Positions 2,236 through 61,800 of a stretch of 64,000 nt of DNA are shown here, one piece after another. Position numbers and translations under genes: made by a program. Under the pieces are notes generated by a model. It searched no databases. It was not told the DNA's origin and saw only the letters and a program-made list of their open reading frames with translations. The first letter of the stretch is position 1, and each line of letters begins with the position of its first letter. Source of the stretch: Undaria pinnatifida (taxonomy: Eukaryota > Sar > Phaeophyceae > Laminariales > Alariaceae); contig JABAKD010000014.1 in the NCBI GenBank assembly GCA_012845835.1, forward strand, positions 558,001-622,000, written 5' to 3'.

Positions 2236-2425
2236 TAGCGTAAGCTGTCCCTATCAGTGGTCTTCGATGTGCACAATAGTTGTGCTATCGTACAGATCCC
2301 AAACATGCGCGCAAGAGCCGTGTCATTCAGATCGATCGCACCGGAAAACATCATCTAGATCGCGCACAACACACAAATCAGGGACACATCTGCCACAAAA
2401 AGGTGGATCATATTGATCGATGCAC

Positions 2426-2475
2426 CTTTCGATTGACGCTGTCGAGACAAGAGAGAGTAAGTGTTGAACATTAAG
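2426..2475 (-). pseudogene. Decayed tandem copy of the BAH-like second exon
   Basis: On the minus strand this stretch repeats the end of the exon at 2664-2783: the block GACAGCGTCAATCGAAAG is identical, but the strong donor GTAAGG of the intact exon is GTGCAT here and the sequence upstream has drifted. The offset between the two exon ends is 238 bp. It matches the tandem exon duplication pattern of the large plus-strand gene at 43-62 kb. Confidence 0.6.
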
Positions 2476-2663
2476 ATTCCCTAATCCGTCAACGGCGTCG
2501 ACAGGTGGGCCCATACCAATCCCACCCCGCCCACATCACCTCGACCATGCAGATGATACAAATCAGGGGTGGATACATCTAGGTTGCGCAGGTCACGAAA
2601 ATCAGGCATGTATCTGAGCCGTGAAATGTCTAGATCTGATCTAGGCCATGTGAGGTGCCTTAC

Positions 2664-2783
2664 CTTTCGATTGACGCTGTCGAGAGAAAGGGTGGAGTAG
2701 GTGTTCGAGAACAATATTTCTTTGTCCGCCAACAGCGTGGCCAGGTGGGTTTCCACCTCGCTGCGGATGAAAAACCATTGCAC
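2664..2783 (-). CDS. Exon of BAH-like domain gene (second visible exon)
   Basis: A 40-codon, phase 0-0 exon with acceptor GATGCCGCAG and donor AAG/GTAAGG. It encodes a segment starting VQWFFIRSEVETHLA and continuing with KEILFSNTYSTLSLDSVNRK. The order Trp-Phe-Phe...Arg, then E-LF/LFSN, then a Leu-Asp-Ser-Val segment followed by basic residues, is the second half of a BAH domain, where WFYRPE-type and NELF-S-type motifs occur (family knowledge). The preceding exon at 3642-3827 supplies the first half in the same phase. BAH domains bind nucleosomes or histone tails, so a nuclear chromatin protein is the likely product. The call rests on motif reading only. Any 3' exons below 2400 were not found. 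Confidence 0.55.
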
Positions 2784-3321
2784 CTGCGGCATCACAGCAA
2801 CGCACGAGAGTATGTGCAAGACCGGTTCAAGTTAGCTAGCATTTTTCATCCCTCTCATACCGGAAACACACGCGGGCCTCACCATCGTTTCCATACTCTA
2901 TCCTAGGCCGCCCATACAGGCCATTTCAAGAGATATATATATAGGATAGAGTAAGGAAAAATAAAGTTTGATGTGTACGGCGTGTGGTTCTGTATTACGA
3001 GAAGGCATTTGGGATTAAACGCCCCAAAACTTGACCATAACCAACCCTATCCAACCCCAACCCCAACCCATGGCCGACCTGCATGGAAGTTGTTCGGGAG
3101 AAATCCGGCAACAACAAAAAACCGGAACAAACGTCGACCCCATCCATGCGTTTTTTTTGTTTGCCTTTTCTACACCTGGTACCAAATACCATACCTGGTA
3201 CATGTTTTTGCGGGCCCCGCACACTGCTGTCTATCCTATTCACAGACGTTTTCTTGCTCTCTTGCCTCGCTAAGGTGACAGAATACAAGCCAGTTAGTTG
3301 GCTCACTTGGCCACCCAACTA

Positions 3322-3853: not shown

Positions 3854-4092
3854 TCGGACAGATCAGATCCCTAGGCATGATCAATAGCGCATGCTCTTCA
3901 GGGCAGAGGAATAGATCCCTGGTCTATATGATCAGCAAGGCCAATAGATCATGTTGCCATATGATCTGTTTGATCTGGCTGATCTAAATTAACCCATGTT
4001 TCCAATGTTGGATCTGTACCACAAAGATCCCGGCCTGTCATGATGATGGATGATCTGAACGATCTAGATCATGATCTATACGATCTGTCCGA
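3854..4092. mobile_element. MITE-3 copy a (GATC-rich TIR element)
   Basis: The ends are TCGGACAGATC at 3854 and its inverted copy GATCTGTCCGA at 4092. The interior is a mosaic of GATC, AGATC and TAGATC words and does not code. Related copies are at 4308-4494 and 50103-50456. It lies 27 bp upstream of the putative ATG of the BAH-like gene. Confidence 0.6.
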
Positions 4093-4105
4093 TGTTTGAA
4101 TTTTG

Positions 4106-4262
4106 CTAACTCACGCTCCCGCGCTTTCCACGCTCGTCATTTTTTACGCAGGAAAAAAGTCCCTACGAGCTCGAGCATGCACTTCGGTGACACGTGAACC
4201 CACGAGCTTGACGTTACTGTAGCTGGGACGAGCTTCGCCTACGACTCCATCCGGAGATGCCG
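4106..4262 (-). mobile_element. SINE-1 fragment (diverged)
   Basis: Matches the body of SINE-1 in reverse orientation: a CTAACTCACGCTC block, a CGCAGGAAAAAAGTCCCTACGAG block and a degenerate GTGAACCCACGAG block where the B box stands in better copies. The 3' end with the poly-A side is missing. It lies between two MITE-3 copies. Confidence 0.5.
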
Positions 4263-4307
4263 ACGATCGTATTAATGCTCCTCTATCAACAGGATATGTT
4301 TTGGAGC

Positions 4308-4494
4308 AGACAGATCCCTGGTCTATATGATCTGCATGGGTTATAGATCATGTTACCGTACGATTTGTATGATCTGAACGATCTACCAGGTGTTCCTTGG
4401 GATGGATCTGTAATACATAGATCCTGCATGCACAATATATAATAACGGCAGATCTAGGATCTAGATAATTCTACGTAGATCGTGATTTGCCCGA
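4308..4494. mobile_element. MITE-3 copy b
   Basis: A shorter, more diverged GATC-rich copy. It shares the AGATCCCTGGTCTATATGATC block with 3854-4092 and ends in CGTGATTTGCCCGA, the counterpart of the inverted end TCGGACAGATCATGATC of the 50-kb copy. The minus-strand exon at 4509-4707, if not spliced, would read into this element and stop at 4471. Confidence 0.5.
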
Positions 4495-11723: not shown

Positions 11724-14700
11724 TGTGTGTGTGTGTGTGTGTGTTCTTCACATTAAACCGTTCTTCTACTCGTCGACATCCAGCACACCCAGTGTCCGTA
11801 CTGATTCTTCACCCTAGAAAGATCAGCTCTGTGGTCACAAGCCACGACACAGAGATAATGCATCGTAATGCATTCGACAACGCAATGTCATGCCCTAGTA
11901 CTGGGTACGACAGGCACAACATACATACGTCAGCAACAGAAATACATTGGAAGAGAGAAATACGAAATAAACAAAAACAAAAACAAAAACAAAAACAAAA
12001 AACAAAAAACAAAATAAGAAAACAAATAAAAACAAAGATAAAAATAAAACAAACAAAATGAAGGGGAAATCGAAGAAACAACCCAACCGCAAAGGAGAGC
12101 CAAAGCTCGGAAAAGAAACATAATAAAATGAAATAAAATAAAGTAAAGTAAAACCAAAATAAGATAATCCGAACACGAGCCAAAAACCTGGACACGCAAG
12201 GAGGGAACAAAGGGGAAAAAAATACCCCAGAGAAAGACGAAAAGTGCTATGTACCTACTAGTCGGCCTGGTACCTTGCTACCCTGTCTGCCATCTCCTTC
12301 CTGCCTTCGTCCACCGCGGTCTCCCTTCTATTCCTCCTGTTGCCCCCCCTGCCCCCATTCCCTTGGACGGCTTTCCTTCTACTCCTCCTGTTTCCCCCCC
12401 TCCCCCCTTTGTGTTCTTCTCATTAAACCAAAATACCTTGTAAAAGAGAGAAACAACGAAAGAAACCAAGACAAAATAAATAAATAAATAAATAAAAAGG
12501 GGAGCCAAAGCACGGGAGATAGAAACATACCCCGAGCATGAGCCAAAATGGACATGCAAGGGGGAAAGAAAGGGAAAGAGAAAAAATACCCCGGAAAAAA
12601 GAAACAAGTAGAAGAAGGAAGACTGGGAGGGCCAAATAAAACAGGCTCGTCACCTACCCACCATGCAAGACTCCCTTCATAAGGATAAGAAGGGGAAAGA
12701 AAAAAAATAAAATAAAATAAAATAAAATAAATTCACGGAAAAATCAAAGTACCAAGACATCACATTCCGAGCAGCCGCAGCAGTTGGCGGTACGAGTGGC
12801 ATAGATAGAAAGGTTCCACCTACTAGTCGGCCTGGTACCTTGCTACCCTGTCTGCGGTCTCCTTCCTACTTTCATCTACCGCGGTTTCCCTTCTACTCCT
12901 CCTGTCCCCCCCCCCTGCCCCCATACCCTTGGGCGGTGTTCCTTCTACCCCTCCTGCTGCCCCCCCTCCCCCCGTTCCCTTCGACACCACCCACGGCGGA
13001 TGCGCGGCGCTGTCTACTCAGCTTTGCCTCATCCTCGTGCCACCTGCCCATGAACCGTTCAGCTGCTTCGAGGACCCCCCGGTACCACTTGCCCACCTTT
13101 TTTGCTGCAGTGGGCCACAGCGCGGTCCCAACTCCAAAAACTAAGGGGGAGTGTTCCGTTGATCCCTCGTTGGCTTTGAACACCCTAAGGTCCTCAGCTA
13201 TGGCTCTAGGCCAAGTCTTAAGTTGTCCGCCTGGTTTCGGGTTCTCCCCACCAGCGATCGTCCCGAACATCAACCGACGGGGCAGTCGCCCCTTGTGTTG
13301 TCGCACCAGGGCCCCGGCAAAGAAGAGCCGCCGTTTACGGATGGTCGTTTCGATGCTCTCGCATCGTGTCATCCTGAGGGCCTTCGCGTACGAGAGGGTG
13401 GTGTGGTCGGTGCGTAATCGGCGCTGGAAGCCAATGACTCGCAAAAGGACTTCGTGGTGGGCTGATCGGAGCTTGGCGAAGTGGTCCGCATTGAGGGTCC
13501 ACGTCACACACCCGTACAGCAGGGTCTCAATGACCTCGGCCTTCAGCATGCGGACTTTCAGACTAAGCGGGGCGGTCGTCCTGTCATACAATTCCGGGCC
13601 AAACCGTTTGAGGCATGCCCGCATGAGACGGATCCGTCGTTCGATTTCGAGCGAAAGGTCAGCGCTTTCGTGGATAATGCCGCCTAGGTATAAAAACTGG
13701 GTCGTCTGTTTATACCTCTGGCCTGATGCTTCGATCGCGAGCGGTGGGGCGAGGGATGTCTGGTCCGGTGTTCGTAGCAGCATCGTCTCTGTCTTCTTTT
13801 CCGATACCGTGAGGCCTGCTGCTTCGAAGACAGTCACGATGACTGTCATCATTTTAGCAAGGCCTTCCGCCGACTTCGAAACAATTCCTGCGTCATCTGC
13901 GTACAACATGCCCCACACAGCCCTTTGCACGCATGCCAACGGTTCCTCTTTTCCGACTGCACTGCCCTCTTCGAGGTGAACCAAATCCCTTACGATGCTT
14001 TCGTCTTTGCTGAAGCGTACCAGCACGACGTGTATCGCAGCAGCGAAGAACACGTTGAACAGTAACGGTGATAGCACGCAGCCTTGCCGCAGCCCCTGGG
14101 TGACATTAAACCAATCCGAGTGCTCGCCGTCATCCGCACGCACGCGAGCCCGCATGCCTTCGTGGAAGTTGCGGATAACTGTAAGCATCTTGGTTGGTAC
14201 GCCAAGGCGTGTGAGTACCTCCCACAACAGTTCCCGGTCGACAGAGTCGTACGCTTTCTGCAGATCGATGAAGCACATGTACAGGGGGATTTTCCTCTGT
14301 CGTCCGAGCTCTTGCAACCGGCGCACGACAAACAGCATGTCGACCGTCGACCGTGCGGGACGGAAGCCGCACTGTTCTTCAGGAAGTATTTCCTCGGCCT
14401 CGCAGTAGTTGCTAAGGCGGGACGCAACGATTTTCAACAATATTTTGCCTGCGTGGGCAACAAGCGAGATCCCTCTGTAATTGTTGCAATCAGTTCGATC
14501 CTTTTTTTTGTGAAGGGTCTTGATGATAGCATCTTTCCATTGCTGGGGGACTTCGCCCGTTACCCACACGTTGACAAGGATATTGTGAAAACACTGGACG
14601 AAAGCGGGGTGGTCAAGTTTTAGTAGTTCGACCGGGAGACCGTCTGGTCCAACGGCTTTCCAATTTGACATGCCCTTAATCGCATCCGTCATCTCGTCCA

Positions 14701-19439: not shown

Positions 19440-20174
19440 TGTGTGTGTGTGTGTTCTTCACATTAAACCGTTCTTCTACTCGTCGACATCCAGCACACCC
19501 AGTGTCCGTACTGATTCTTCACCCTAGAAAGATCAGCTCTGTGGTCACAAGCCACGACACAGAGATAATGCATCGTAATGCATTCGACAACGCAATGTCA
19601 TGCCCTAGTACTGGGTACGACAGGCACAACATACATACGTCAGCAACAGAAATACATTGGAAGAGAGAAATACGAAATAAACAAAAACAAAAACAAAAAC
19701 AAAAAACAAAAACAAAATAAGAAAACAAATAAAAACAAAGATAAAAATAAAACAAAAAATGAAACAAACAAAATGAAGGGGAAATCGAAGAAACAACCCA
19801 ACCGGAAAGGAGAGCCAAAGCTCGGAAAAGAAACATAATAAAATGAAATAAAATAAAGTAAAGTAAAACCAAAATAAGATAATCCGAACACGAGCCAAAA
19901 ACCTGGACACGCAAGGAGGGAACAAAGGGGAAAAAAATACCCCACAAAAAGACGAAAAGTGCTATGTACCTACTAGTCGGCCTGGTACTTTGCTACCCTG
20001 TCTGCCATCTCCTTCCTGCCTTCGTCCACCGCGGTCTCCCTTCTATTCCTCCTGTTGCCCCCCCTGCCCCCATTCCCTTGGACGGCTTTCCTTCTACTCC
20101 TCCTGTTTCCCCCCCTCCCCCCTTTGTGTTCTTCTCATTAAACCAAAATACCTTGTAAAAGAGAGAAACAACGA
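19440..20174 (-). mobile_element. 5'-truncated LINE copy (about 735 bp)
   Basis: Nearly identical to the 3' part of the LINE at 11724-12450: (TG)n, then TTCTTCACATTAAACCG..., the (AAAAC)n zone and the CCTACTAGTCGGCCTGG block. It stops abruptly after GAGAGAAACAACGA, the sign of incomplete reverse transcription. High identity suggests recent activity. Confidence 0.9.
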
Positions 20175-43324: not shown

Positions 43325-43825
43325 ATGAAAGAGGATGACAATAATAAACAGGCGGATGATCCTGGTGCTGCTATTGCGGGGAACATTGCCACAAGCAGCC
43401 CCGGCGAATCCACCCCAGACCCTCGGCAAAACCACCCGACTACCACCAAAAGCTACGGTATGACCCCGGTCATCGAAAGCGGTCCTAGCCGCGGTGGAGC
43501 AGGGCGCAGCGCCCTCATATCAGAACTTGTCGCGCAGTTAAAACGAGGAGAGATCACGAAAACCGACCTTTTCGCGAGATTGCAGCAGTTGCAAGGCGCT
43601 GGGGTTACTGGGATGGGGGATGCCGCGGGGGCTGCCTCTGCCACTGCCCAGTCACCGGCATCGTCTACCAACGCATTACCGTCGACGTCGGGCTCTCTTC
43701 ATGTAGCTGGTGTGGGCGCTGGTCGGGATGGTGATGCGTCCCTGGTGTCTTCGGGGGGGAAGGAGGAGGCGGCGGATCCTGGGGAGGAGGAGGCTGCGGG
43801 GTTTTTCAGCGCCAATGACCGACAG
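43325..43825 (+). CDS. CTFxPxI gene, exon 1
   Basis: ATG preceded by an in-frame TGA (43319-43321), so this is the first Met in frame. 167 codons, ending AATGACCGACAG/GTAACA in phase 0. Starts MKEDDNNKQADDPG; residues about 63-87 form a charged helix-like segment ELVAQLKRGEITKTDLFARL, the rest is Ser/Gly/Ala/Glu-rich. Probably cytoplasmic or nuclear; no signal peptide or membrane segment. Confidence 0.65.
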
Positions 43826-46800
43826 GTAACAGACATCACACGCACCTGTGTACCGGTACGTACCTGGTACCGTATATACCTGGTAGTAGCTTCTGTACCA
43901 GTGGTGTGAGTATGAAAAACGCAAACGGTAGCTGCCGACCATCATACCGTCGTACGAAATCCAGGCAGAAGACGACGAGTGAGATCGTTGCCAAGCTTCT
44001 GTTCGCAGTAACATTGGCGCAGACTACACGTGAGCTCTTTGGGCTGCTTCTTTCGGAAACAGGAGATTTCATGTGGACTCTGACTCTTGCTATTGTACCC
44101 GTATGATGCTGTTACGGTCTGAGTCCTTGCGCCGTCAAAAGGCGACAGCAGCATTCTGGGAACGCAAACACCTGCCTCGTCGTAGTCGTATCTGCATCAA
44201 GCAGTAGTACTGCTGCTCCCTGCAGTTTGTCGGCGCAAGCTACGTGTAAGGGTCGTTTTCAGCTCATTGGGTTATCCTCTGTCGGAAAATGGCGATTACG
44301 TGATGAATCTTACTAATACGTGGCGCGACGAATTGGTCATGGATTTCACTCCCCAAGGCACCGACATCGGGCTACGAGTCAGACCGGCTCCAATGGAACA
44401 ACCACGCGGGTGACTTACGCGAGCGTTGCTGCTGTAGTGACGGTTCTGTGCCGGGTGGACGATTGTTTTGCGAGCCAACTGAGGCTCGTACTCGTCAAGA
44501 TTCAACCCTCGTTGATTCCGGTAAACTACCGAAATTGCACCGAAAACTGAAATATTTTACGTATCGTTAAGATCGACCCTTATTGTCGGCATGGTATAGG
44601 TACCAGTAGTGTCTTAACCCGCGCGTCAAAGCGCGGCAAAACTCTTGTGACGCGAAGACCTGCCTCGTATATACGACTCGTACGTACGACTTACGTTATT
44701 ATAATACTCGTACTGCTGTATATACCCGGCAGGTATACCCGGCAGGTCGTCGGCGCAAGCTACGATAGCGCGTGTACGCTCTTTGGGTTATCCTCTGCCG
44801 CAGTCTACGTGGCGATTACTAGTATGTGACGAGTCTTCTTGTCGGCGTAGTGGTTTTGCGGAGATTCTGGCTAGGAAAGAAGCATGGCGTGTCGTCGTGG
44901 AGGGTGCATACGTGATACCGGCCGCGTCTATTGGGCGAGAAGCACCAACCACGTCTATGATTTCCTCCCAGGTCTTGAAGCGAGGTTGTCTTTCCCTTCC
45001 GCCCTCTCCCCCCGAACGTACCCGTTGGCCTCACAATCGTGATTAACTCCTTTAGACTACAGTATAGTCCACATTCTGGGGACCAGAGGAAGAAGTGTGA
45101 AAAATGCACGTACTCGTTCGCATGGGCCAAGCAGCACTGGCCTCGATCTCTTTGTGAACTCCTTTTTTTCCTGACCAATAGATGGCCATATACTACTGTT
45201 ACTGGCGCTGCTGAACCTGTTTTACATCAGGCTATTATCAAGAAAATCGCGGATGAGCGGCGACGTAGGGCGCAAGACATCCGACAATCATGGTCGGAAG
45301 GCGGTCCAACCGATCCTGCCCAGCCCCAACCTTCATCTTCCACAGAGGTATCGACGTCAGGCGGCATCCAATCAGATCCCCTCGCGGTCTACTCTTCCAC
45401 ATCTCAATCGTCATTACAGCAACAGAAGCACCATAACGCGTCCCTGTCAAACGCCCCTACGCCGTCTTCTACTGGCGTGCAAAGTTCATCGAACTCCTTC
45501 CGTGATAGCGGAAACAGGCGAACGGCGTGGGAACAAAACAACGTCCCCGAATCCCCCCTCGGGAACTACGAAACCCCCTCCAACAAGTTTCCATTTCCTA
45601 CGAACAATGGACGCGGCGGTGACGGTCGCCGGGTTGACTCCGCCGACCGCGATAATCTGGCATCGTCGACACCGTCGTCGCGCGATGTTGGGGGGGGGGG
45701 GTCGCGGAGGGACGGGACACGGTGGACGGCTGAACTTGCCACGCGAACACCATCCCATGCTACTGGTCGTGGCGGTATCGGAGGTGTTACCGGTGGCGGC
45801 GGCGGCGGTGGTGATAATGGTGACCGATATCACCCTACCCCGTCCTCAAACCGCCTCGCAAGCGTAGGGGACACCAACACCGGGGAGGAGGAGGCCGCAG
45901 GGGGTCGGTACGGGGATCGCCGCCGGGGTCAGGGGAAGTCGAACCCTGGAGGTTTGCCAACGCGCAAGAGCGCCATCGATCCGACGATAGGGGCGGGTAC
46001 GACGCGCACGTCTCGCGTGACGTCACCGCTAAGCCGAGGACAGCACCACGGGTCCGGGGCGGTACCACCGGAAGATGTCCTAGGTATAGTTAATGTCGTT
46101 GCTGCTGTTGTTCCCGCTTGGCTCGCCATCGCCATAGTCTAGTCCGTGGTAAAGAAACAGGCTCCAACCGATATGTAGCGAAAGAGCACCTCAGACAAAA
46201 ATAGTATGGACCCGTCGACAAGAGTCACCAAACCTGAGCAAGGCTTGGAGGCTTATTGTGACACCACCCTTGAGCAATCTTGAGCCTAGGTTAGTATTAC
46301 GAGCGAGTGCGAGTTTTCTAGTTTACCCCGCGCCAGCAAAACGGGTCCCCTTTCGAGGTCGATGAAGCCGGATTATCGAAACACGCACAAAAGTTGACGA
46401 CAGTTACAGATATACTGCTGCGCGAATTCCTAGCGACAGGTATACTATGTTACACTGGTAGGGCGTAGTGTATCACTCGCCACTAAGCAGGATCTCTTGA
46501 TCTAAATGCCTTGTTGCCCACCAAAACGTGAGCCTGTCGTTCTTACGTCGTTACTTCTTGCTCGGGAGCCTGTAATGCAACCCTAAACATGGATGCAGGG
46601 AGCTCGTGGACGAAAGGCGGTGGCGATACGTGGGATGCTGAGCACGGTTTCGTGATGTGAATTTCTTGCCGCCCCCCAAAAAGGAGGTCTGGCGTTCTGA
46701 TTCGGTTATTTCTTGTCGTCCGCCGAAAATGAACCCTGGGGTCCTTATTAGGTTATTTCTCATTGTTAGGCGTATACTGTAATCGTGAACCTGGCGCAGG

Positions 46801-49800
46801 GAGCCCGTGGACAGAAGGCAATGAAGATACGTGGGGTGGAGCTGGCCGTGGGGGGGGGGGGCAGCAACAGCAGCAGCAGAGGAAAGAGTGGGACGGGGGG
46901 GGGGGTGCGGGTAGGGGCGGGGGGGAGCAGGCGAACGAGAGGACTGTTGACGAGGATGCTTATCGCTTCAGGAGCTTCAGCGAGGAGGTAGATAGTATGC
47001 CGCCGCTTACCTACGTGCTGCTGTGCTGTAGCCGTCCTCGATATATATATATATATATGTTATGGCCGTCCTCGACCCTTGTTTCAGAGTTAAACCCTTT
47101 CTGGCTGCATCCACGCATGTCTCCCTCGGTGTTGCAGCAATATTCAGTATACATTCAATTAACCCTAACCCTAACCCTAACCCTAGCCCTATCTTTCGGA
47201 CTGCCCATGTTTCGGGCAAAGCGCTTGAAATGTGAGTAGGATCAGCTTCTCCGCATAGCTCGACTGATGATCCGCACACCTCGACCCGCACACCGCAACC
47301 GTTCCGCGTGCCTCCACCGCTGATACCGAGTCTAATACCCCGTAATACCCCGACTAATATCCCGCAGCGTGCTCGCCGGGGCGAAGAGCTTGTCCGGCGG
47401 GAACTGATGAACGAGTGCACGTTCACGCCGAAGATCAAGGGTCTGCCGCAGGTGCGGCGCTTTTCTGCAGAGAAAATTCGAAGACGTTTAAAAAGAAAAC
47501 GCGAAGAAAGCCGACAACAACAAAAGCGAATACGAAGAAATTTCGAAGAAATTTCGAAGAAATTCGAAGTTTTGTATATGTTCTCCGCAGCAAGCTCGTC
47601 ACTGGCACGGTACTTTTCATGTTCACGCCCATGGTGAAGGGTCTGCCGCATATTCAACGCTGTTTTTGTGGGGAAAATTCGAAGACGCTACGAAGAAAGT
47701 GCGTAGAATGTTCGAAATACACCAAGAGAATGCGGAGATTTTTCTTCCGCGGCATCATTGTCGCTGGTACGGTAGTTTGCCAGACCATGGTTGACTCTGT
47801 CCTTCGGCGAGAACTTCCGCCCTGCATCTGTCACCCGAGATTAACGCGGCTGCGGCCCATCTGGCCGTGGCATTGTTGCCTGTGTGTATGTGTGCGTTCG
47901 GGATTTTAAACAGTTATTTTTAACCGTCGGCAATAAGTAGGACATCTGATGTCCGTGCCGATTCTTTCATCCAAGATACCAGCTATGTGGTCAGAAACCA
48001 CGAGACAAGATGTATAAATCGAGCGTGTAGAAAGGAGATTGGGCCATGCAACACCAAACGGTTTGGCCACGCAAAGCGATCCGCACTGGGTACGAAACGT
48101 GCCGTGTGTTGAAGTCGGTGTTTGATTCGATATTTCCGACGGGTAGGGTCATTGTCAGCGCGCTCCGCACGTGCTTGCCGAAGCTGACCAGCAGTGTTTA
48201 CGACCTGGCCTAGCTTCGAGAAAATGGTTGATAGTCTACGCTAACTCGTCACTACAGGATCGTTTCCACAAATTTCTCAAGCGGTCGGGGTTAGGGTTAG
48301 GGTGTAAGAACTGGCGCGGCAGTGTTTTCCGTTTTGTGCCTCGCATAATGCACCTGTCGGCCAAGCCACCCGCCCAAGCTCGGCTCAAGGACGAACGTCC
48401 CCGCGTTCCCTTATCGCTTACCAAATGGCAGAGCTACGGTGCGACCAACCACGACGAGACGCCATTTCTTCAGCGCGTTAGCCAATGGCAAAGGGAGAAG
48501 GAGAAAGACGCGGCCGCCCGCAAGGTTGACGGGGAGGTAAGAGTTTGCTATTCCGCCCCGGATAATAAGACACTTCAAAACACCCTTGTGAGTTACAACG
48601 CATGATTAGAGAGGGACGTTTTTTGCTGTGGTACGTAAGGGTAAGACTACGCTCTAAGAAACACATTATCAGATGAAAACACCAAAGTACCATGCTACTA
48701 GGCACCGCTGACGTCGCTGCCACCGCCGCCCCCGCCGCCATCGCCGCCACCACCCTTGCCGATGCCGCCGTGTCGCTACGGCCCGCCCGCTTGCTGATCG
48801 TGCAATTTTTGCAATGGTACTATCAGGTTTAGACTAAGCTCCAAGAAAGCAATTGTCCGACGAAAAATAAAAATGACGCTTGATGGGCACAGCTGACACC
48901 GCCGCAACAGCCGCCGCTGCCACCGGGTCGTGTTATGAGGGCTGATAAGGCCTTAGGAATATGATATGGGGACGCAACACGTATTACTGGTTGCTCCGAG
49001 GGAAAAGCATGGGACACGTGGAGTAGTTTATTGCGTCCCCTTCTTTTGGACTTAATGCTGACCTGAATTGAAGCCAAAGCTGCTGTTCTTCTATATCTTC
49101 CCAGCGCACAAGAGAGTGACAACGAGGGCCTGCTCAATAAGCAAACCTAGGAGGCAGAAAGTCAGCTCTGGCCCTCCCCTTGCGCTCCCGCCCCCCCCAA
49201 CTATCGCTCACCTCCCTACACCCCCCCCCCCCCCTGCTGTGTATTCGCATTGCTTCCCCGCCCGCGCTTACCTCCCCCCTTCCCGGGAGTTCTCTGTGTC
49301 CCCATAGCAATCCATAGCCATGTGGCGTCGTCGGTAGGATCAAAAGCAGTCGCCCCTACCCATCCCGTTGCCCACTCGCTCGGCTGGTGATTTTTTCCCT
49401 TGCCCAGGACAAGAGCTAGAAGCGTGTGCCTTCACTCCGATCGTTCAGTTCTTGCAGTTTCATAAGGCCTTGCTGTTTTATTGGGCTTAGACTACGCTCC
49501 TAAGGAAATATTATCAATTCAAAACGAAACAAAACGTTTGCTGTCAGACACCGCTGACGCCATTGGCGCCGCTGCCGCGCTCCCTGTACCCAGGAAAAGG
49601 AGCTGGAAGCGTGTACTTTCACGCCGCACGTGAACAAGGTCTCTCGCCGCGCGGCTATACTCAGGAGGGAAGCTCTCGGCGAGAAACACTTGGCAGTGGA
49701 CGACCGCCTCTACGACGAGTCCCTAAGGAGGTGCATACCAGGAATGCACGACAGCGATAACTGTTACCCTTGACGCGTTCTACGAGCGGGATACCGGTAG

Positions 49801-52800
49801 CACTTTTAGGCCAAGAACGCCAGGCTGTCGGAAGTCGGCTAGATACTCAATGCGCGAACTCGACAACATATATTTTGTTGGTTACATAGCTCTATCTACT
49901 GAGCTACTTAGTCACAGGTGATCTGTCAGAGGTATGCCTGCTGTCTCTGCGCCAGGGATATGGATCGGTATGATACGGCTCTTGCCCAGCGTGTCGTTTT
50001 TGCTATGGAGCGCCATATGGCACGCGTAGATATAGACGTGAAACTGCAGTAGGTCGGTCGTTTCATGGATTCGGAGAATACGTGATGCCGTCCTTCCACA
50101 CCTCGGACAGATCATGATCTAGATATATCATATGGATCATATAGATCATACAGGTCATCCACAGTAGTAGACCCTATTTCTGCCCGTTGCGAGATGTTGT
50201 GCAGGATCTGTATATGAAGAGAACAGATCCAACTCTGGAAGCATTCACTAGATCATGAGATCGTACGACTCCCACCCGGTAGCATGAGCTAGATCATACA
50301 GACCATACAGATATTCCCTGTAATATCTAGACGATCAAGTGCGGATCGATCGTAGATGATCTGTCCGACGATCATAGATGATCTGTCCGACGATCATAGA
50401 TGATCTGTCCGACGATCATAGATGATCTGTCCGACGATCATAGATGATCTGTCCGACGTGTGCATTCTTTACATAACGAAAGCTATGATATGTAGGTGGT
50501 CTAGATCGCGACCTGTTCGCTATTTAAACGACTCGAAAACGGCTAAAAACGACCGAAATCGACTAAGACCAATACCAAAAACGACCGAAAAAGAAAAAGA
50601 AAGCACCCGACCGAAAACGACTCGCAAAAACGGTATGTGCGCAACTTTCTTCTGCTTCAGGGACATGGATGGGCCCCACCTTACCGCAGAGCAGGCTTTG
50701 GAAGAAGAAAAACGTCTCAATCAAGTGTGTACCTTCACGTGAAATCGACACAGAAACGACCAAAAACGGTTTAAACAACCGACGAAAACGACGAAAACGA
50801 GAAACGAAAACCCGACCGACAACGACTTGTGTGCGCTATTGTTTTTTGTTCGATAGGGATATGGACCGGTCCCACCTTACCGCGGAGCAGGCGTTGAAGG
50901 AAGAAGAACGCCATCACGAAGAGTGTACTTTCACGCCCGAACTTGCAACTCAAAGAGCCGCCGCCTCCGCAGGTATGGTTTGAGCTGTTGCCGCATTTTT
51001 GATTCCTTGTAAAACGCGCCTCGATGTGGACATGATGCTAGTAGTAGTACTAGTAGTACCACGAGTAGCTAATAGTAATAGATACGGTAGAGGTGAGCCA
51101 ATTTTGTGTTTTGAGGCTCATAGCCACTTGAGGAGGTTTCATGAAATACCTCACCCAAAACTTTTTTTTTTTTCGTCCACCCGATGCACAAACCAATGGC
51201 CTAGGTGTACAAACGAAATAATACCAACTGAAACTCCAAAAACCAAGGGACGAATCAAGGGTCTAGGTGTACAAAACAAACAATAATGCAGAGCAAGTAA
51301 TGGCGTTCGGACTTATTTTTGTTAGCGTCGTAAATTATGCTAATAGGCTAAGGAATCTCGTCTTCCAGAAATATTGCAGCCACAAACTCCGACCTCAATC
51401 GCGGCACGCGCCTGCGCCAGGGGAAGTGTGCCGTGTAAAACCAGCAGGTAGGATTTAAGTTGCTGCAGGAAGTGAGTTTTAGTTTTGCCGTATACAGTTC
51501 CGCAGAAAACGTGGCACGATGCTGTCACGTAGTACATGCCCCGCTTTCCATGTATATATCTTGACCTGGAAGGAGCGGGGGCGCGGATGACTCAAAGGGC
51601 GCCCTCAAGCCGTTTTCAACTTCTCCTTTTGTTTTACAGCCCTACTCTTATCCTTACGCCAGGCGATAGCAGTTACAACCATGGTGATGCTAGCCGTACT
51701 GGGGGAGGGTTTACATTGCGCCCCCGCGGTCGATCGCGGTACCGCCAATCCTCCCCCCTAAACCCATTTACCCGGGAAGGATGCGATGGCAACCCGGGAA
51801 AAACCCCGGAAGCGTTGACGTTTTCTTGCAGCCAATCTCGCATCAGGTGATGGCGATGCAAACCGTGTCGGGAGCGGCTACACTGCCCCCCGCAGCTGCT
51901 GGCGGTACCGTCAACCAGCGAAGCCTTCCCCAGACCGTTTACCCCGGGAGGGGAGGATAATATGTCATCCCCGGAAAAAACGCCATGTTGGTCGTTTAAA
52001 AAAGCAGCGTTCCCTGTTTGTGCAACCCATCTCGCGTCACGTGATGGCGATGCTCTACATTTTTTGGGGGGGATACACTGCACCCTGCGGCTGATTGCGG
52101 TAACGCCAACCAGCGAGCCCCCCACAGAACAGCTAACCCGGGGAGAATACGATGACATCCCCCTGCGAAGCAACGCAACGTTTCCCTTTTCAAAACGCAA
52201 TGTTTCCCTTTTTGTGCATGCCATCTCGCGCCGGTTGATGGTGATGATAACGGCATTCAGGGGGGTCACATAGCGCCCCCCCCCGACCGAGCGCGGTACC
52301 GCCAAGCAGCGAACCCCTTCCGCGCCCTTAACCGTTTACCCGGGGAGGATACGGTGTCATCCCCGAACAAAAAACTCAACATTTCCCTGTCAACCGCGAC
52401 GTTTTCCTTTTTTTGCAACCCATCTGGCGTTAGGGGATTGCGATGGTAACGGTTTTGGGGGGGGCTACACCGCACCCCGCGGCCGATCAAGGTACCGCCA
52501 AGCAGCGAAAGCTGTTGCCGCCGCGGTGGCCACCGGTGGCGTGGGTGGCGGCGGCAGCAGCGTGTGGGGCGCCGGGAGACGCGCTAATTGGGTAGGTGGA
52601 AGGAATGAGCTGGAAGCGTGCACATTTTCGCCCGCTGTCATCGGGGCGCGCAAGGGGATGAACCAGGCGCAACAGTACCTTCAGGTACGTGTGAGAATTT
52701 TACGCTTGGGACATTTGACCAATTGGGTGGTCGATTTACAAAAAGTAAACTTGCGCAGCAGATCAGTTTTTCAGTTGATTTCTCGACCTCACAGCCGACT

Positions 52801-55800
52801 TGTATATGTTTTTTTTTCTTAATTTAAATAAAATAAAAATGCGTCATTTGAGTCCTCCCGATTGAGTCAACAATCAACTTTGCAAGCGTATGACCACGTG
52901 CGCAGTATGCACGACGTCGTTGTTTACGTAATCACCTTTTTTTTTGTGTTGCTTTTTCCCTCTTTCGTTTCCATCTTTCTTTGCGGTACGACGTGCTTGG
53001 GCGATGTACCAGTGTATCGCCTTCCAGTCGCCCGAGAACGCCGGAAGCATATTACCGACGTAAAAAAACATAGCAAGCGTAACGTTTTTTCCACTTTGCC
53101 TTGCTTTTGTTCAACCCTAACGATCCGATTTTGTAGCAACAAGCACTCGGCTTGCACTTTTTATTTTTGTCCCTGCCGGTTTGTAAGCCGCGCACGCAGT
53201 ACGACGTGGTTGAGCGGCATACCGGTGGCGTCTTTCGCTTCCCCACGGATACCCAAAGCACTTTACCCGCGTACAACAAAACCGAGAATGAAAAAAAAAA
53301 AATGTCTGGGTTTTTTTTTTTTGCCTTGCCATTTGCTTTGTTTATTTTTTAGGGTAACACCCTATGAGGCAAAACTTGAAAAAACAACAACAAATACTCC
53401 GGCTTGCATGCTTACGTGTCCCCCCCCATCCCACCGCGCGCACAGTACGACGTGGTTGAGCGGCTTACTGGTGCCGCATTCCGCTCCCCCGAGGGCACCG
53501 AAAACGAGGACGGAGTCGGAGATGACAGCGAGGAAGGGGAGGCGCTGTTTGGCTACGTGAGGGGGGTGGGGGGGGGCGTGGCGATGCGCGCCCAGCCCAA
53601 CGGGCAAGGTTCTTCGGCGTGGGCTAACACAGCAGCGGGCGGGGATAAGGTATGGGGGTGGTGAGGGGGGGGACTTTTGGGTAGGGGACGCCGCTGTGCG
53701 ATTGCTCTCTGACACGTGCAGAATTTTATTCAACGTAAACTGTTTTTTCTCATTCTTACACGAGCGTCGAAGTAACAAGTGACGCCTCTACACGTTCGTT
53801 TTATACCCAAAAACTTCTGGGTAATCGATTCCGCGAACGCGACACAGACGGTTTTCGATTCTACTGGAGGGGCGTTCCGACGGCCGGGGTCGGGGGGGAG
53901 CGACGCGAGCGCTAGCTTTCACGCCTTTTTGTCGAGGCAAAACAAGATGGAGACTGATAAGCGCCGACACATCGAGGCCATTCAGGTAAGCCAGAAAACT
54001 CTGCAGCAGCAGCAGCAGCAGCAGCAGCAGCTGTACGGACCAGAAACCCAGGGGACGGCCTTTTTTGGTCCCCGATTTTTGCCGTGATAGCCGTAGGTAT
54101 CGCGAAAAGATTGCTCACGGTAGTTGCGGTTACACACTTGTTGGAATCTGGTTGAACTGCCGTCCCTGATACGAGTCTTACTACGGTAGCCCCCCCTAAC
54201 TTTTCTTTAACGAAACCGCCGGTTTCAAAACCAGCTCCCGGTCGTATCTCCTGGAATTACGGTGTCCCTCAACACCCTCCCAGACGTCATCGATCGATAG
54301 ACCTTTGCACACAAGAAAACATATGGATACTTTTCTTTCAATAGTATCCTTCCTTGTGTCGAGCAGCCATGAAACGTCTTTTGTTAACGAAAATCGCTGG
54401 TTTTTGGGGGGGACTGTCGTAGAATCAGTTATACGTAGTGTTACCTGCAGGTATAGTGCACTTGCTTGGCTTTGTTTTCTGAAACATGGGAGGGGGGAAA
54501 GTGTCGAAACTAACTTGGCTTTTCACGTGTTATGACCCGGCTCGCGGGTTGGCCCAGAATGTTATCAAAGTCCCACGGGTCGGGTCGGGTCGGGTCGGGT
54601 CGGGTCGGGTCAGCAGGTTTGCAAATCTCGCGGGTCGGGTCGGGCCACTCCTTTTCTTCTTTGTAAAAGTCTCACTTTTACTTTCAAGAATCTGGGCAAG
54701 CCGTGGTTACAGGTGGGTTCGCTTCTCTCCCATCGGTGTGTGCCTTCGTTTGTATCGCGCAGAGGGGTCATTCAGCATTCCCAACGCTCGTCGATTTTTC
54801 ATCGAATTTTTCTAACTCGCTCGCGCTCTTGCGCTTGCTTTCTACTGATAATTTTTGGACAAGAAAACGTCGTCCGAGTATGTTGTAGTATGCGCTCGAG
54901 GGAGGTCGAACCAGCCACGTCGACCATTATATTAGTCACGAGGCCAACCCACTAGACCATCGGGAACGCCGACATGACCCGACCCGGCCCGCGAAAAAGT
55001 GACCCGTCCCGTGAAAAGCCCTGGAAACGAAAGGATACCATCACAGCATCGGACACACGGGGCAGCCTAAACTGTCGGGAGGGGGCATGTGTCCCGAGCG
55101 CCAAGTAGGGAGATAGATGCCAGTTATCTCGCCCATGTTTTTTGGGTCTAACCTACTTGGAAGTTGAGTGGGAACGTTTCCGCGTTGGTAAAATGATGGC
55201 TGGGGTCCAGGCTGGGGGCTACGTTTAACAGTGTGTACCCCAGTTTCGGAGCACCCGAGACACGAGCCTCGGTAACTTAAGAGAGGCCAAATCGGCATGT
55301 CCCGCCATGCTGTAACGTCACATGTTGCTCCACTACAGACAAGAACAATGTGTCGCTAAGAACGCCTGTGTCGGCTTGTCACGGGGTGTGCTTGAGTCGG
55401 GGTACCAACTAGTCGTCAAGCCCAGGTCGACTCGCAGCTCTAACTCATGGGGGTATTTTACACGTTGAACTATTAATAGTGCTGCGGCAGAGGCACCGTC
55501 ACCTGAGGGCACTGCAGGAAGCACAATAAGGGGTGGTATTGATGGGCGGTACAAGGTTCCCCTTCGCGATGTGGCTGGCTTGAAACCCCGGGGGGGGCGC
55601 AAGTGAAAATGAGAAACACAGGAACGTTCCAACGAACGATTCTAGGTACGATAACATATTGTCCTATGTACGACCTGCGGGGAGCATGATGACACTTCCT
55701 ATGGCTGTACGGTCGTCCTCGACGGCTGATACTATCCACCGTTTTTCACGGGTCGTGATCCGACCCGTGGATCGGGTTAAGATACTTTTGTGCATCCAAG

Positions 55801-58800
55801 TATGTGTATGCAAGAGTCGACTCGAGTTGACCGGGGAAGAAAATTATGAACTTTCAAAGATATACATCAAGGAACGCGCCGTGGTGGAGGGGGGGGGAGG
55901 GGGGGGGGGGGGGGTGCTATGTGACCCGGTGCTATGTGACCCGGGATCTGAGCTAGGAAGAGTGAAAGAGTTGGAGACGTAGGTGTGATGGGAAAATAAC
56001 ATAAGATATTGGAGGGATGAGCTAATGATATACCAATATTGAACTACTGATGTTATACCAGTGGAATTCTAACCATGAAATCGCCCACCGCCTCTCCCAC
56101 CCGCGATGCTCGCGACCTCAAACACTGCCAACACTACCTGGAGCTGTCAAACCACCCTTTTCGGGCTGTCATACCCCGAAGGGGGCTAGTATTTAGGTTA
56201 CGTAGATACGAGGCATTGAAGGAATGAAGTGCTACTATTATAATGATACTATTCAAGTAATTCTAGGCATGACGTCGCCGACCTAACATCCTCACCCGTG
56301 ATGCGTCGCGACCTCAAGCATTAACACTTACCACCAGGACATGCCGAGTCCCCACCGCTTAGGCCCGCCGTATGCGCGGGGAGCGCTAAGATCCGGGGTC
56401 ACCATTTTCTCACCGCCAGAACGACCCACACTCTAATACCAAGTAATTTGTCCCTAAACACAGGTGCAGTGTTACATACTCCAGGGAAGGAGAAATTTTA
56501 TACCGGTAGCATTCTAACCACGACGTCGCCGACCGCTTGTCCGTCCCGCGACCTGATACACCGTCACCACCAGGCGATGTCGAACCACCCGTTCAGGCCT
56601 GCCATATGCCCGGAGAGCGCTAAAATCCACTCTGAGAGCAACAAGGGAAGCTTCCTCCAGAGGGTGGCTCGGGACGCCGCAAGGAAGGAGCACGAGGCTG
56701 GTCGCCAACAGGCGAGGAACGGCGTGCGGGAAGGGAAGCGGTTTTGGTTTAAAGAGTGAGCGTTTTTAAAGAAAAAAAGAAAAAGCAAACCTTAAGGGAG
56801 CATTTGTCTAAAACTTCGTCCTCGCAAGCTACCCTAGCTCTAGCTAGAGACACCACGAGAAAGGAGTACGAGGCTTGCCGCCGGCAGGCAAGAATGAGCA
56901 GGCCCGGGAGGGGGGCGGAGGTGTACTCTTGTCATGCATGGCTGTAGGCGTAAGACCGTAGACCCTCGGGCGGGGGTGTAGTCATGGTCATGGCCGTAGG
57001 GTTATTCTTAAGGCCATACACCCTTGTATCAAGACGGGGCAAGTCGAGTTTTCACCAAGCGGAAGAGGAGGGGTGGTTTGAACAAGCTTGAGCCTGTTGC
57101 CCTAGGGTATTCGTTTTGTCTCTCTCGTGCAAACCCCGTTTGATGTTGGAGTTGCCTTGTTGGTTTCTTGTTTTATTTCGTTTTGTTATTTTGTCCTCCG
57201 GTGGATGGGCAAAAAATAAAGGTTACCCTAACCACTTTTCCACGTATCAGATGTATCGTGTGTCAAGTTAACCCGGCTGCATGGCACAACGGTGCTGCAT
57301 TGTGCCAGCTTGATTTTCCCAGCGCTAGCTCCGTCTTGTTTCTCACGTGTAATCCAATTTAGCCACGCCTTTCGGGGATGTGGACATGTGTCCTACCTAC
57401 AGCCGGGTAGTTTCCAAACTCGTACCTTATCGTTGGAATATGACCGTTGTGACATGATCGTTAGAATATGACCGTCGGGATACAGCGTTGGGATATGACC
57501 GCTGGGATATATTGTTGGGACATGACCGCTGGGATGTGACCGTTGAGACACGACCGTTGGGACATATCGTTGGGATGTGACCGTGATAATATAATCATTG
57601 GGATTGCAGGCGTCCGGAATGCACGATCCAGGCTGCACGCCCAAGCCGCAGATTACCGCCCGCTCGATCATCCTCATGCTACTGTGTCGGGTGGCCAACA
57701 TTCTAATCGTTAACTACATATCCAAACCGTATGTAACTGCCCTGAAATCGCGAAACAGCACCCCAAATCGTACGTAACCGTTGGGATATGACCGTTGGGA
57801 TATGACCGCTTGGAATTTCAGGCGGCGGGAATGCACGATCCGGACTGCACATTCAAGCCGCAGATCACAGCCCGCTCAGCCACCCTCCAGGGTCGGAGCG
57901 TGATGGAGCTTAGCAGGGGTGACCAGTTGAAAAGAGAAACCACGAAGCGCCTCACCCGACTTAGGGCAGAACAGGTGCGACACTCCCACCACAGTCTTAA
58001 GGGCCGTTTCTAATACCGCAGAAATAGCTCGTTTTTTTGTTCTTCTATTTTGACAAGTGTTTAGCAAAATAAAATGCCAAGTTTCCCGTATAATTACCAA
58101 CTACCCAGCTTGCAAAGATGAGTATTGACCCTAAATCGTCGAACTCGCAGCTGACGTCCTTGATTTTTTTTTTATAAATTGCCAAATTTCCGTATGTTCG
58201 CCACACGTTTTCGGGGCACATGTCACTTGTCCTTCCATGGCAGAGGTACGGACATATTATTTGCTACGAGGTGTGAAGTTTGCTCCTTCTTTTTTTTGCT
58301 GCTTGCAAGACGTAGCCAACTTGGCATTTTTTCTTGTCTTGCGTGTCGCCGAAAACGCCCCCAACCATCGTCAAATTATGTGTCTAGTCTACGCACGGCT
58401 ACGTCAGAGATGCACGATCTGCCTTCTGAGGTTGGTTGCTAACATGGCGAGGAACTATGTACCCCACCTAAGGACTTAAACTTGAGAGAAAAAGAAGGAG
58501 TGCTTTCAGCCGTTGTGATGAGCAATGCCATGGCCTAGGTACAAAAGCGAAAAACGCTGCGAAACAAGACCAACATGCCGGCTGTGTTGGGTTAATAGCC
58601 CCTTTAGAGTCCCCAAATACCTCCCTATACCGACTTCAAATAAATTTGTCAAGAGAAAAGGGTTTCCACTTTGAAAGGCGTTGAGGGGCCCCGTCATTCA
58701 CAAAGCAGTTTTCCTTGCGGGGGCTGATTCTGTCGTGGCTCTATCGTAGCGCGGATCTCGAGTGTGTTCGTTCGGGATGGCACCGAGCGGTGTCGGTACT

Positions 58801-61800
58801 GCCAGAATATAATCCGGTTGCCTCCCGAAATTAACCACCGAGCATACGGACTTCCAAAATTTATCCGGTTGCCTCCCAAAATGAACCACCGAGCGTACGG
58901 ACTTCCAAAATTTAGCTCGGTGTGAAGGCACCGCCTGCTGAGAGACAGGTTTAAAAACGCCAGCCGATTGCTGTTGATAGAGCCAGCAGGGCTGTGAGCT
59001 GGCTGGCTACACTAATAGTGTACTAATGGTAAGTCGTCGACTTAGCTACTGGTTACTAGTTGGCCAGATACTTTTTAATACATTAGTACTATATGTATAT
59101 AAGTTACAGTGTGTTGCCGTGTATTACTGTGTGTTACGGTTTGTTTTCGTTCGGAAATTAGCGGAGGTTTGCGTCTTTGCATTCGACCGACGCGCGCGTG
59201 GCTGAACGTGTGGTATTTACCACCGGTACTAATGACGAAGTCAGCCACCTCGGCGCCTTAAGAATAAACTTAAGAGCCAGGTTAAGCGTTGCAACAATGT
59301 GCTGTCTTATTTTGTCGTCGATTGTGTGCAGGAACTGTTGGCGGACACAACGTTGGAACCGACCGGGGGTCAACGCCTCTGAGAGGAAGAACAACGTTCC
59401 GACCGAGGATTAACGCTGCTGAGACAAGGAAAAACGAAATGTGTCGAAGCTTACAAACCGTTTCTCTTCACCGTAACAAAAACACTACACTAATTTTAAG
59501 TTAGTTTTATCCCACAAATGTAGGTAAAGTTCTGCTGGAAACTCGTTTTGGGCGACATTATTTCTTGAATTTAGTGCAGGGGGGGGGTTGGGGGCTCTAA
59601 AGGGGTTACAGTGGGCGTCCCTTTCTTTTGGACACCTATGTAGAATGCTTTGTTTCCACGCGCGGTAATGCTGTACCCGAGATATGTCTTCTCGTCAACC
59701 GATAACTAGAGCCATGTTAAGCCTTACAACAATGCGCTGCGTAATTCTGTCGTCGATATTGTGAAGGAGCTGTTGGTGGACACAACGTTCCGGCCGAGGA
59801 TTAACGCCGTTTCGAGGATGGCGGTCTCCAAGCTTAAGGTTTTGTCCGACCCCGGCAATTACATCGCCACCGTCGAGGTAAGCCTGTGGAACGGCGATGT
59901 GGTAAAAGGTCTTGAACATGCTTTTGTGCTGATGGTAAGGATTTAGGAGGGTAGTTGTCCGTGTGACCATATTGGTAGAATGTTCTTGTACCCTGGTAAC
60001 ACTCTCCCGTCCTCCCGACGACGCCGTTTGTGGAGGAATTAGGAGCGTATCAATCCGTTTGGCCATTGGCAAAGGGTTAACCAAGTGCCTACCCAAACCA
60101 AGCCTTGTAACGCTGAACTACTAATACTATTGGCGTCATGCTCATGGCTTCAAGGGCAACCATTTTTTTTCCCCAAGTCCTTAACATGAGAAGCTCAATG
60201 TGCCTCGTCTAAATCCCGATTTTGAAAAGAAAAAAGAAAATGTGTATGTCCAGATGAAAAAAAGAATCCCGTGGGCTAGGCATACAACGAAAAAAAGGTC
60301 AAAACAAGCCCACGCCTTTGAACTCGCTGCTGGAACAGTGCCATCAGACCCCGAACATCGCTCCCTCCGCGCAATAAACAGCACCATTTTCATGGTTAAG
60401 TCCCATCAGTCGTTCCGGCGGCTTGAGGGGCAGTGGGTGGTGAGAGGAGCGTTGGAGAGAGCGACGAGAGAGGTGGAAGGGAGTAGTATTTTATTTCTCT
60501 CCCCTAAAAATACAACGCAGAAAACACGAGCATCTGGCCCAGCCGCTGCTGCTGGGCAGCTAGTAGCAACAGCACATTGTCTGTTCTCGTGTTCTACCGG
60601 TCTGCCGGCACTACCCCGTGCTGTACCCACTTGATATTGCCGCCGACGCGATCAACCAAACGCTGCCATGCAGCTGCAATCAGCGTCGATTCCTCAACGA
60701 CAGAAGATGAACCAAAACGCCCTCCTACTTAATTATCTCTCGCCACAAAAGACATGTTATCATTTGTTTGGTCCCTGAACTATTCTTTGTTCGGTTGCGG
60801 AACTAATCATCTTCTCCAGTTTACATTCTTTCGCGGAAAAACGTGGCTTTTTTTTGTTTTTTCTCTCCTGCCAGTCACTCCGGCGACTTAAGGAGCAGTC
60901 GGTGGTCAGAGGGGCGTTAGAAAGAGCGGCGAAAGAGGTGGAAGAGTGTACGTTTGCACCCAAAACCACGGAATGCCCTGCCTACATCTCGGTGAGAGAG
61001 AGGAAAAACAACAACCTATCACGCAAAAAGATGATAATTTTTGTGTGGCTCTTTTTAGTGCACAGCTTTGGCTATGTAACAAGCGTATGGTCGGAAAGGC
61101 GAGAGTTTATGCCGTTTTATTGTTTCGTAACATTAGCTTAGTTTAGCCTAGAAGGACGCTAAGGACCGGCATGCGTGTGTCGTGTTGTTGTTGTATACCG
61201 TGTTGGCCTAGTTATCAAGCGCGGTCGACGGGTGCGTATTCTCTTCCTTGCTTATTTTTCTCTCTCGTTTCCCTTTCTTTATTTACTTTTTTCTACTCGG
61301 ATTTGTACCCTGTTGGGCTTTCTTGGTGGTATATGGTACTCGGTTTCAGCTGCGAGTATTGAAACGTTTGTACCAGTACGCGCCTGATATGTACGTACGC
61401 TGGCTTACGATTTTCACGATTAGTTTTATTTATTTGTTGGCTGACGTACGACTTGCATCACCTATGATATGTACGTGCACCACTTTTTATTGTTTTTTTC
61501 CTGGGTTATTCTTCCACTTCAGATTGACTGGAGCCTGTCCTGTGACCACAGACTTGATCACGCGAGTTGATGCGAGAACAATAGCACCAGCAACCACCGA
61601 CAACGGCATCGTCTTGCTACTTCTTGAACAGATCCCGCCTCCCAAAAGTCGTTCGCACTCGTATTTTTTACCAACCCCGAACACGTTTTTCCCAATCGCG
61701 TGTGTTTCCTACCCACGTCATATTCCTTGCCTCTTCTCGAACAACAGCGGATCGCTCACAGCATCTCGGCGTCAAAAGCTGCCGCGGGCAAGCAGAAAAC

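What the first reader, a model, noticed from the sequence alone, without database searches (positions are those of the whole stretch)
46599..60991. Most exons of one gene have a tandem, decayed twin about 200 bp away
In the CTFxPxI gene, exon/twin offsets are 201 (exon 3), 200 (exon 4, twin downstream), 186 (exon 6), 196 (exon 7), 246 (exon 9), 198, 236 and 176 (exon 11, three extra copies), 212 (exon 12), 435 (exon 13) and 465 (exon 14, about twice the step). Introns are duplicated with similar steps (188 in intron 5, 216 in intron 1, about 195 in the 51.7-kb array). The unrelated minus-strand BAH-like gene shows the same (238). Usually one copy keeps frame and splice sites and the other has lost them. 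A step of 176-246 bp is close to a nucleosome repeat, so the duplication mechanism could be tied to chromatin (for example slippage or end joining between adjacent linkers); that link is speculation.
Basis: partly seen in the sequence, partly recalled or inferred. Interest (0 to 1): 0.88.

Follow-up and report, generated by a model that had tools for sequence, protein, structure and literature searches.

The report
Decayed partial exon copies in kelp gene
In one gene of what looks like a kelp (wakame) genome, most exons have an old, partly copied and apparently no longer coding duplicate nearby, usually about 200 bases away; short local duplications of many sizes turn up elsewhere in this genome, so the 200-base step looks like a feature of this gene rather than a general rule.

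Summary
Nine of 14 exons of the CTFxPxI gene (my exon model) have a local twin; the 12 pairs aligned (10 exonic, 2 intronic) beat 500 Markov nulls and 462-470 placements elsewhere. Seven exons have steps of 185-246 bp, two 435 and 465. Twins are partial: all 8 exons with upstream twins are copied as acceptor plus exon head, ending before the donor. Codon-position divergence fits a non-coding twin.

A genome-wide 200-bp step is not supported: in 24 random 10-kb loci and 5 kinesin genes, local duplications are common with broad offsets and no 200-bp peak after clustering. Yet in this gene 8 of 12 clusters fall at 185-255 bp against 13 of 75 elsewhere (p 0.0009, range chosen afterwards), density is about 4.5 times random, and the twins look coeval. 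That is unexplained.

Best reading: ordinary short local duplications with a breakpoint inside an exon; the incomplete copy becomes intron and decays. The nucleosome link is untested. Assembly statistics match Undaria pinnatifida.

The parts
43325..43826 (+). exon 1 of the CTFxPxI gene (my model)
   Evidence: open frame from ATG to GT donor
45231..46083 (+). exon 2
   Evidence: open frame between AG and GT
46595..46637 (+). twin of exon 3 head (upstream, 201)
   Evidence: 35/43 identical, 0/500 Markov; only at threshold
46799..46987 (+). exon 3
47370..47451 (+). exon 4 (CTFTPKI)
47618..47708 (+). twin of exon 4 tail plus intron head (downstream, 200)
   Evidence: 70/90 identical
48369..48535 (+). 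exon 5 (acceptor uncertain)
   Evidence: open frame
49396..49439 (+). twin of exon 6 head (upstream, 185)
   Evidence: 38/44 identical; not found by the exon-only scan
49593..49730 (+). exon 6 (CTFTPHV)
50547..50739 (+). twin of intron 6 tail plus exon 7 head (upstream, about 196-207)
   Evidence: 193 bp aligned to 50754-50935;
50858..50971 (+). exon 7 (CTFTPEL)
51681..52509 (+). intron 7 array, about 195-bp unit, about four copies roughly 70% alike
   Evidence: DNA search of the genome finds only itself
52585..52684 (+). exon 8 (CTFSPAV), no exon twin found
53188..53257 (+). twin of exon 9 head (upstream, 246)
   Evidence: 56/70 identical
53446..53649 (+). exon 9
53850..53986 (+). exon 10 (edges uncertain)
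56050..56188 (+). twin b of exon 11 head (upstream, 445)
   Evidence: 97/127 identical; 196 bp from twin a
56250..56394 (+). twin a of exon 11 head (upstream, 234-249)
56573..56699 (+). exon 11 (3' edge uncertain)
57568..57665 (+). twin of exon 12 head with acceptor (upstream, 211-212)
   Evidence: 79/98 identical
57822..57974 (+). exon 12 (CTFKPQI)
59273..59377 (+). twin of exon 13 head with intron tail (upstream, 435); a second piece at 59391-59416
   Evidence: 84/101 identical; second piece
59764..59877 (+). exon 13 (TTFRPRI)
60407..60485 (+). twin of exon 14 head (upstream, 465)
   Evidence: 65/79 identical
60875..60990 (+). exon 14 (CTFAPKT)
2663..2783 (-). exon of the BAH-domain gene
   Evidence: Pfam BAH 3.8e-9 for the joined translation of three exons
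2425..2509 (-). twin of that exon's tail plus donor (downstream, 238)

Best explanation
Each twin is what is left of a short local tandem duplication with one breakpoint in an intron and the other inside an exon. In most cases the copied piece is intron tail, acceptor and exon head. Only the complete copy can make the normal mRNA, so it stays under selection; the incomplete copy becomes intron DNA and drifts. Shown: the pairs, their partial nature, neutral-looking decay, and that local direct duplications of many lengths occur in random pieces of this genome. Inferred: that the events arise by error-prone repair or slippage of the ordinary kind, and that tolerance of incomplete copies inside introns explains why they persist. 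The clumping near 200 bp and the similar age of the twins in this one gene stand out in the data but are not explained; a period of relaxed constraint or a local burst is my guess.
For: Pairs above all nulls. For 8 of 8 exons with upstream twins, alignment stops inside the exon before the donor. Codon positions 1, 2 and 3 differ at 35/187, 32/183 and 46/184, aligned intron at 108/502: the twin is about as free as intron, with a mild third-position excess. Exon 7 gives a nearly complete head-to-tail unit (193 bp aligned at offset 207); exon 11 and the 51.7-kb array are series. Unique-copy local duplications elsewhere: 27 clusters in 24 random loci (offsets 71-723) and 5 in 5 kinesin genes (64-149), the filter admitting 60-1000; among them young ones with almost no spacer, L013 (75 and 169 bp, 96-99%), L022 (124, 92%) and L029 (409, 94%). 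A kinesin exon in L035 has the same anatomy: acceptor plus exon head, 136 bp upstream, 96% identical, ending inside the exon.
Against: Density in the gene is 10 clusters per 18 kb against 2.2 expected, and 8 of 14 CTF exons against 1 of 20 kinesin exons have twins: a uniform background does not give this. Offsets clump (8 of 12 in 185-255). Twins are too alike in age for the constant-rate model that I simulated: a minimum divergence of 0.115 or more in 3 of 5000 runs, variance as low in 43 of 5000. Several pairs show only short copies with long unaligned stretches between (79 bp at 465; 56 bp at 136 in L035 with 96% identity), which plain head-to-tail duplication does not predict, least of all when young.
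Confidence: 0.62

Rival explanations
1. Chromatin-tied duplication: breaks in neighbouring nucleosome linkers are joined so that one nucleosome repeat is duplicated (about 200 bp) or two (about 435-465 bp), mostly over exons.
For: 8 of 12 clusters in the gene at 185-255 bp versus 13 of 75 elsewhere, Fisher 0.0009; two of the rest near twice the step; of 19 unique-copy window offsets 9 lie at 194-246 versus 1 of 32 control offsets at 185-246, range-scanning permutation 1 of 400. An array with offsets 184-211 in kinesin locus L034 (before masking).
Against: Control offsets smooth with no 200-bp peak; kinesin genes 0 of 8 in 185-255 after masking; 11 of 56 random clusters in that range. With other ranges the window excess is weaker (150-250 p 0.009, 160-220 p 0.04, KS p 0.014). 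Range chosen after seeing the data. No nucleosome map.
Confidence: 0.12
2. Pure visibility: duplications fall everywhere at a constant rate and exon twins are seen more often only because one copy is constrained.
For: In simulation at twin divergence 0.22, exon-containing pairs are seen in 168 of 200 and intron-only pairs in 66 of 200; at 0.26, 90 versus 8.
Against: At 0.18 intron-only pairs would still be seen in 174 of 200; young twins, the easiest to see, are missing (1 of 19 window pairs at 85% identity or more versus 15 of 32 control pairs, p 0.002). The simulated indel rate is an assumption.
Confidence: 0.22
3. Templated local copying: repair synthesis copies a short piece to a place tens to hundreds of bases away, giving spaced rather than head-to-tail repeats.
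For: Young pairs with spacers: L035 56-bp copy with 80-bp spacer at 96%, L010 270-bp copy with 203-bp spacer at 98%, L018 82-bp copy with 28-bp spacer at 95%.
Against: Other young pairs have spacers of 0-2 bases (L013, L022, L029); exon 7, exon 11 and the intron array are head-to-tail or nearly so. Later insertions or deletions can also make spacers.
Confidence: 0.2
4. Functional twins: the upstream copies are decoy acceptors or alternative exons kept by selection.
For: 8 of 9 upstream twin copies in this gene keep the acceptor AG; several frames stay open over the aligned part. Upstream to downstream is 9 to 2 over CTF, BAH and one kinesin exon (p 0.065; test, counts).
Against: AG retention is within neutral expectation (about 6 of 9 at this divergence, my arithmetic); first and second codon positions differ nearly as much as intron; the exon 6, 11a and 13 twins carry frame-breaking gaps; no upstream twin has the exon's 3' end.
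Confidence: 0.07

Closest known systems
Small tandem duplications made at DNA breaks (CST / Pol alpha-primase fill-in; Schimmel et al. 2021 (author and year recalled), PMC8355091; start of abstract and passages seen)
   Same: Short head-to-tail local duplications; the paper's introduction (passage seen) says that insertions in humans and plants hint at error-prone break repair.
   Different: No break or repair step was observed here; the experimental overhangs in the passages I saw are 43-49 bp, shorter than this step.
Intron-exon tandem duplication in a potato RdRp gene (Ma et al., PMC4974935; start of abstract and passages seen)
   Same: The duplicated piece is an upstream intron-exon structure carrying the acceptor, and a cryptic GTAAG became a donor; close to the exon-head twins here and to the kinesin twin in L035, which is followed by GTAAGA.
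   Different: In potato the copy became a new exon and a new intron; here the copies appear unused, in existing introns.
Brown-algal exon shuffling of LRR exons in ROCO genes (Teng et al., PMC11378527; passages seen)
   Same: Same group of organisms, if this is a kelp; repeated local exon duplication.
   Different: There whole 72-bp phase-2 exons are kept and alternatively spliced; here partial copies decay.

Membership tests
Local tandem duplication | Same-orientation copies close to each other | tested here: met
   All 12 pairs aligned
Local tandem duplication | Head-to-tail junction without spacer | tested here: inconclusive
   Nearly met for exon 7, the exon 11 series and the 51.7-kb array; exons 13 and 14 show only 105 and 79 bp of a 435 and 465 bp step
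Duplicated or mutually exclusive exons | Both copies carry acceptor, whole exon and donor | tested here: not met
   0 of 8 exons with upstream twins are copied to the donor; the exon 4 twin lacks the exon's 5' part
Intron gain by tandem duplication (AGGT model) | Exonic segment with AGGT duplicated, new intron between the copies | tested here: not met
   Upstream twins include the acceptor and in most cases intron tail, and lie in existing introns by my exon model
Nucleosome-phased duplication | Genome-wide excess of lengths near the nucleosome repeat | tested here: not met
   64 control offsets, smooth null reaches the maximum in 1495 of 2000 runs; small sample, about 0.26 Mb plus the rest of the window
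Nucleosome-phased duplication | Breakpoints in linkers | not testable with these tools
   No MNase data

The most novel reading that the evidence does not exclude
A single past episode duplicated nucleosome-sized pieces over the exon edges of one gene, mostly of about one repeat length and a few of two, so that the gene carries a fossil record of chromatin-guided breakage and repair.
Probability: 0.1. Interest if true: 0.8.

Novelty: new variant of a known kind. Interest (0 to 1): 0.4.

Why it matters
It shows a way in which introns in a kelp can grow: short duplications with a break inside an exon leave partial exon copies that turn into intron. Partial exon copies with intact acceptor AGs are a trap for gene prediction. 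If the common step and common age hold up, the gene would be a natural test of whether chromatin sets the length of small duplications.

Tried and rejected
A joined exon 3-4 protein finds only itself in the genome. Rejected: a dispersed 195-bp satellite (the intron 7 array matches nowhere else in a DNA search that skips common words); new-intron creation from AGGT; whole-exon duplication. I looked by eye for nearby matches of the same profile part in the Pfam exon lists of kinesin, HSP70 and actin (130, 74 and 50 matches) and saw none, but truncated twins would fall below the threshold and the planned positive control did not complete, so I give this no weight. Literature: the listings of searches (12-15 rows each, 4) show no paper on nucleosome-length intragenic duplications by title; apart from the papers cited, only listings were read.

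Rows dropped: one search listed 88 clusters (28 window, 53 random, 7 kinesin); one search kept 51 (19, 27, 5) after removing those whose copy is found in other loci and offsets outside 60-1000. Short-period repeats (up to 60 bp) and low-complexity matches were masked or filtered; this removed an array with offsets 184-211 in kinesin locus L034 that unmasked one search shows, a row that would have favoured the 200-bp reading. One search uses no filter for dispersed copies (87 clusters). L001-L008 were not used as controls. Of 80 random places drawn, 24 were fetched; they come from 23 contigs and only from the parts below the highest coordinate seen, so the sample is not fully random. L011 and L014 hold long N runs.

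Caveats on statistics: the 185-255 range and the age test were chosen after seeing the data; divergences come from trimmed local alignments of 22-52 sites each; the two exon 11 copies are not independent; the detection model assumes uniform ages and a low indel rate; the exon 3 pair is the weakest.
Full report
What the window is. The window is 64 kb of contig C20 in a 511,146,479-base genome of 68 contigs; the largest contig I saw has 32,303,302 bases. A published table gives Undaria pinnatifida M23 as 511.3 Mb with a largest scaffold of 32.30 Mb and 50.1% GC (PMC12116465, passages seen). I take it to be that kelp; the table's scaffold number (114) differs from 68, and no gene-based test of identity was answered.

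The gene. I read 14 exons between 43325 and 60990 on the plus strand from open frames with AG and GT borders. Exons 4, 6, 7, 8, 12, 13 and 14 carry CTFxPxI-like motifs. Pfam gives nothing over its cut-offs for ten ORFs. The minus-strand neighbour has a BAH domain (E 3.8e-9 for three joined exons).

The pairs are real. The 12 pairs I aligned exceed all 500 Markov simulations and all 462-470 placements elsewhere in the window. Nine of 14 exons have a twin; by a stricter exon-only scan it is 8 of 14, with exon 3 just at the threshold and exon 6 missed. Offsets are 185-246 bp for exons 3, 4, 6, 7, 9, 11 and 12 and 435 and 465 for exons 13 and 14. Exon 11 sits at the end of a three-copy series (steps 196-199 and 234-251) and intron 7 holds a series of about 195 bp, which a DNA search finds only here.

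The twins are partial. Eight exons have upstream twins, and in all eight the match ends inside the exon before its donor; the exon 4 twin lies downstream and lacks the 5' part of the exon. The BAH twin is also downstream and holds the exon tail. Counting one kinesin exon, upstream to downstream is 9 to 2 (p 0.065). For exon 7 the alignment covers nearly the whole unit, so the unit ends within the exon, just after TTCACG. For the others the apparent end may partly reflect where exon conservation stops.

Decay. Over ten twin copies, mismatches at codon positions 1, 2 and 3 are 35/187, 32/183 and 46/184 and in aligned intron 108/502. A twin under coding constraint should show far fewer changes at positions 1 and 2. 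So the twins drift, while the exon changes mainly at third positions.

Is 200 bp a rule of this genome? I fetched 24 random 10-kb loci and five kinesin genes located through Pfam. Local direct duplications are common: 27 unique-copy clusters in 218,856 unmasked random bases (offsets 71-723) and 5 in the kinesin genes (64-149), with a filter of 60-1000 bp. A more sensitive scan gives 56 random and 8 kinesin clusters, of which 11 and 0 lie at 185-255 bp. Offsets from controls and the rest of the window decline smoothly; a smooth null reaches their tightest clumping in 1495 of 2000 runs. Two rows lean the other way: uncollapsed pairs in the first 20 random loci are most numerous at 150-199 bp (16 of 173), where arrays count many times, and an array of 184-211 bp in kinesin locus L034 was lost to masking.

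Is this gene unusual? Yes. It holds 10 unique-copy clusters in 18 kb where 2.2 are expected (Poisson 1e-4). Eight of 12 sensitive clusters lie at 185-255 bp against 13 of 75 elsewhere (Fisher 0.0009); by the stricter method 9 of 19 window clusters lie at 194-246 against 1 of 32 controls at 185-246, and a permutation that scans over ranges gives 1 of 400, while other fixed ranges give p 0.009 and 0.04 and a KS test 0.014. One of 20 kinesin exons has a twin. The ten twin copies are also alike in age: first- and second-position divergence pools to 67/370, homogeneity p 0.94, and a constant-rate model with a similar detection limit rarely lacks young twins (3 of 5000) or shows so little variance (43 of 5000). 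The window has 1 of 19 pairs at 85% identity or more, the controls 15 of 32 (p 0.002). These tests were chosen after looking.

How it most likely works. Short local duplications are found in most random loci I looked at in some form. Young examples are both nearly spacerless (L013 75 and 169 bp, L022 124, L029 409) and spaced (L010, L018, L035), so more than one repair route may act. When a breakpoint falls inside an exon, one copy is incomplete and only the other can give the normal mRNA. The incomplete copy lies in an intron and decays. A kinesin exon in L035 shows a recent case: acceptor and exon head, 136 bp upstream, 96% alike over 56 bases, ending inside the exon. Exon constraint makes such pairs visible for longer than intron pairs, which explains part of the exon association. 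Why one gene shows many of similar age and step is open.

Known relatives. Small tandem duplications at breaks (PMC8355091), a potato gene in which an intron-exon piece was duplicated in tandem (PMC4974935), and shuffled LRR exons in brown-algal ROCO genes (PMC11378527) are the nearest cases of which I saw passages. In those passages none describes a gene with partial twins of most exons at one step.

Noticed in passing
L035:2998-3053 and 3134-3189: A kinesin motor exon has a 96% identical copy of its acceptor and first part 136 bp upstream; the copy is followed directly by GTAAGA and by my count would make an in-frame exon of about 48 bases. It could be a new alternative exon.
   Followed up: partly
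G000:C2:16034374-16037637 and 16063521-16066784: Two kinesin loci with identical scores 29,147 bases apart, which suggests a recent segmental duplication.
   Followed up: no
window 12168-12459 and 19883-20174: A 292-base direct repeat, 99% identical, 7.7 kb apart; perhaps the ends of a young mobile element.
   Followed up: no
window 50347-50458: Five nearly perfect copies of a 22-base unit in intron 6; similar GATC-rich words are seen by eye in an intron of the BAH gene near 3900-4400.
   Followed up: no
window 48620-48739, 48806-48924, 49479-49576: Three related copies in intron 5, perhaps a small repeat rather than a tandem duplication.
   Followed up: partly
L034:4116-4383: A short array with offsets 184-211 bp in a kinesin gene, seen only without masking.
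   Followed up: no
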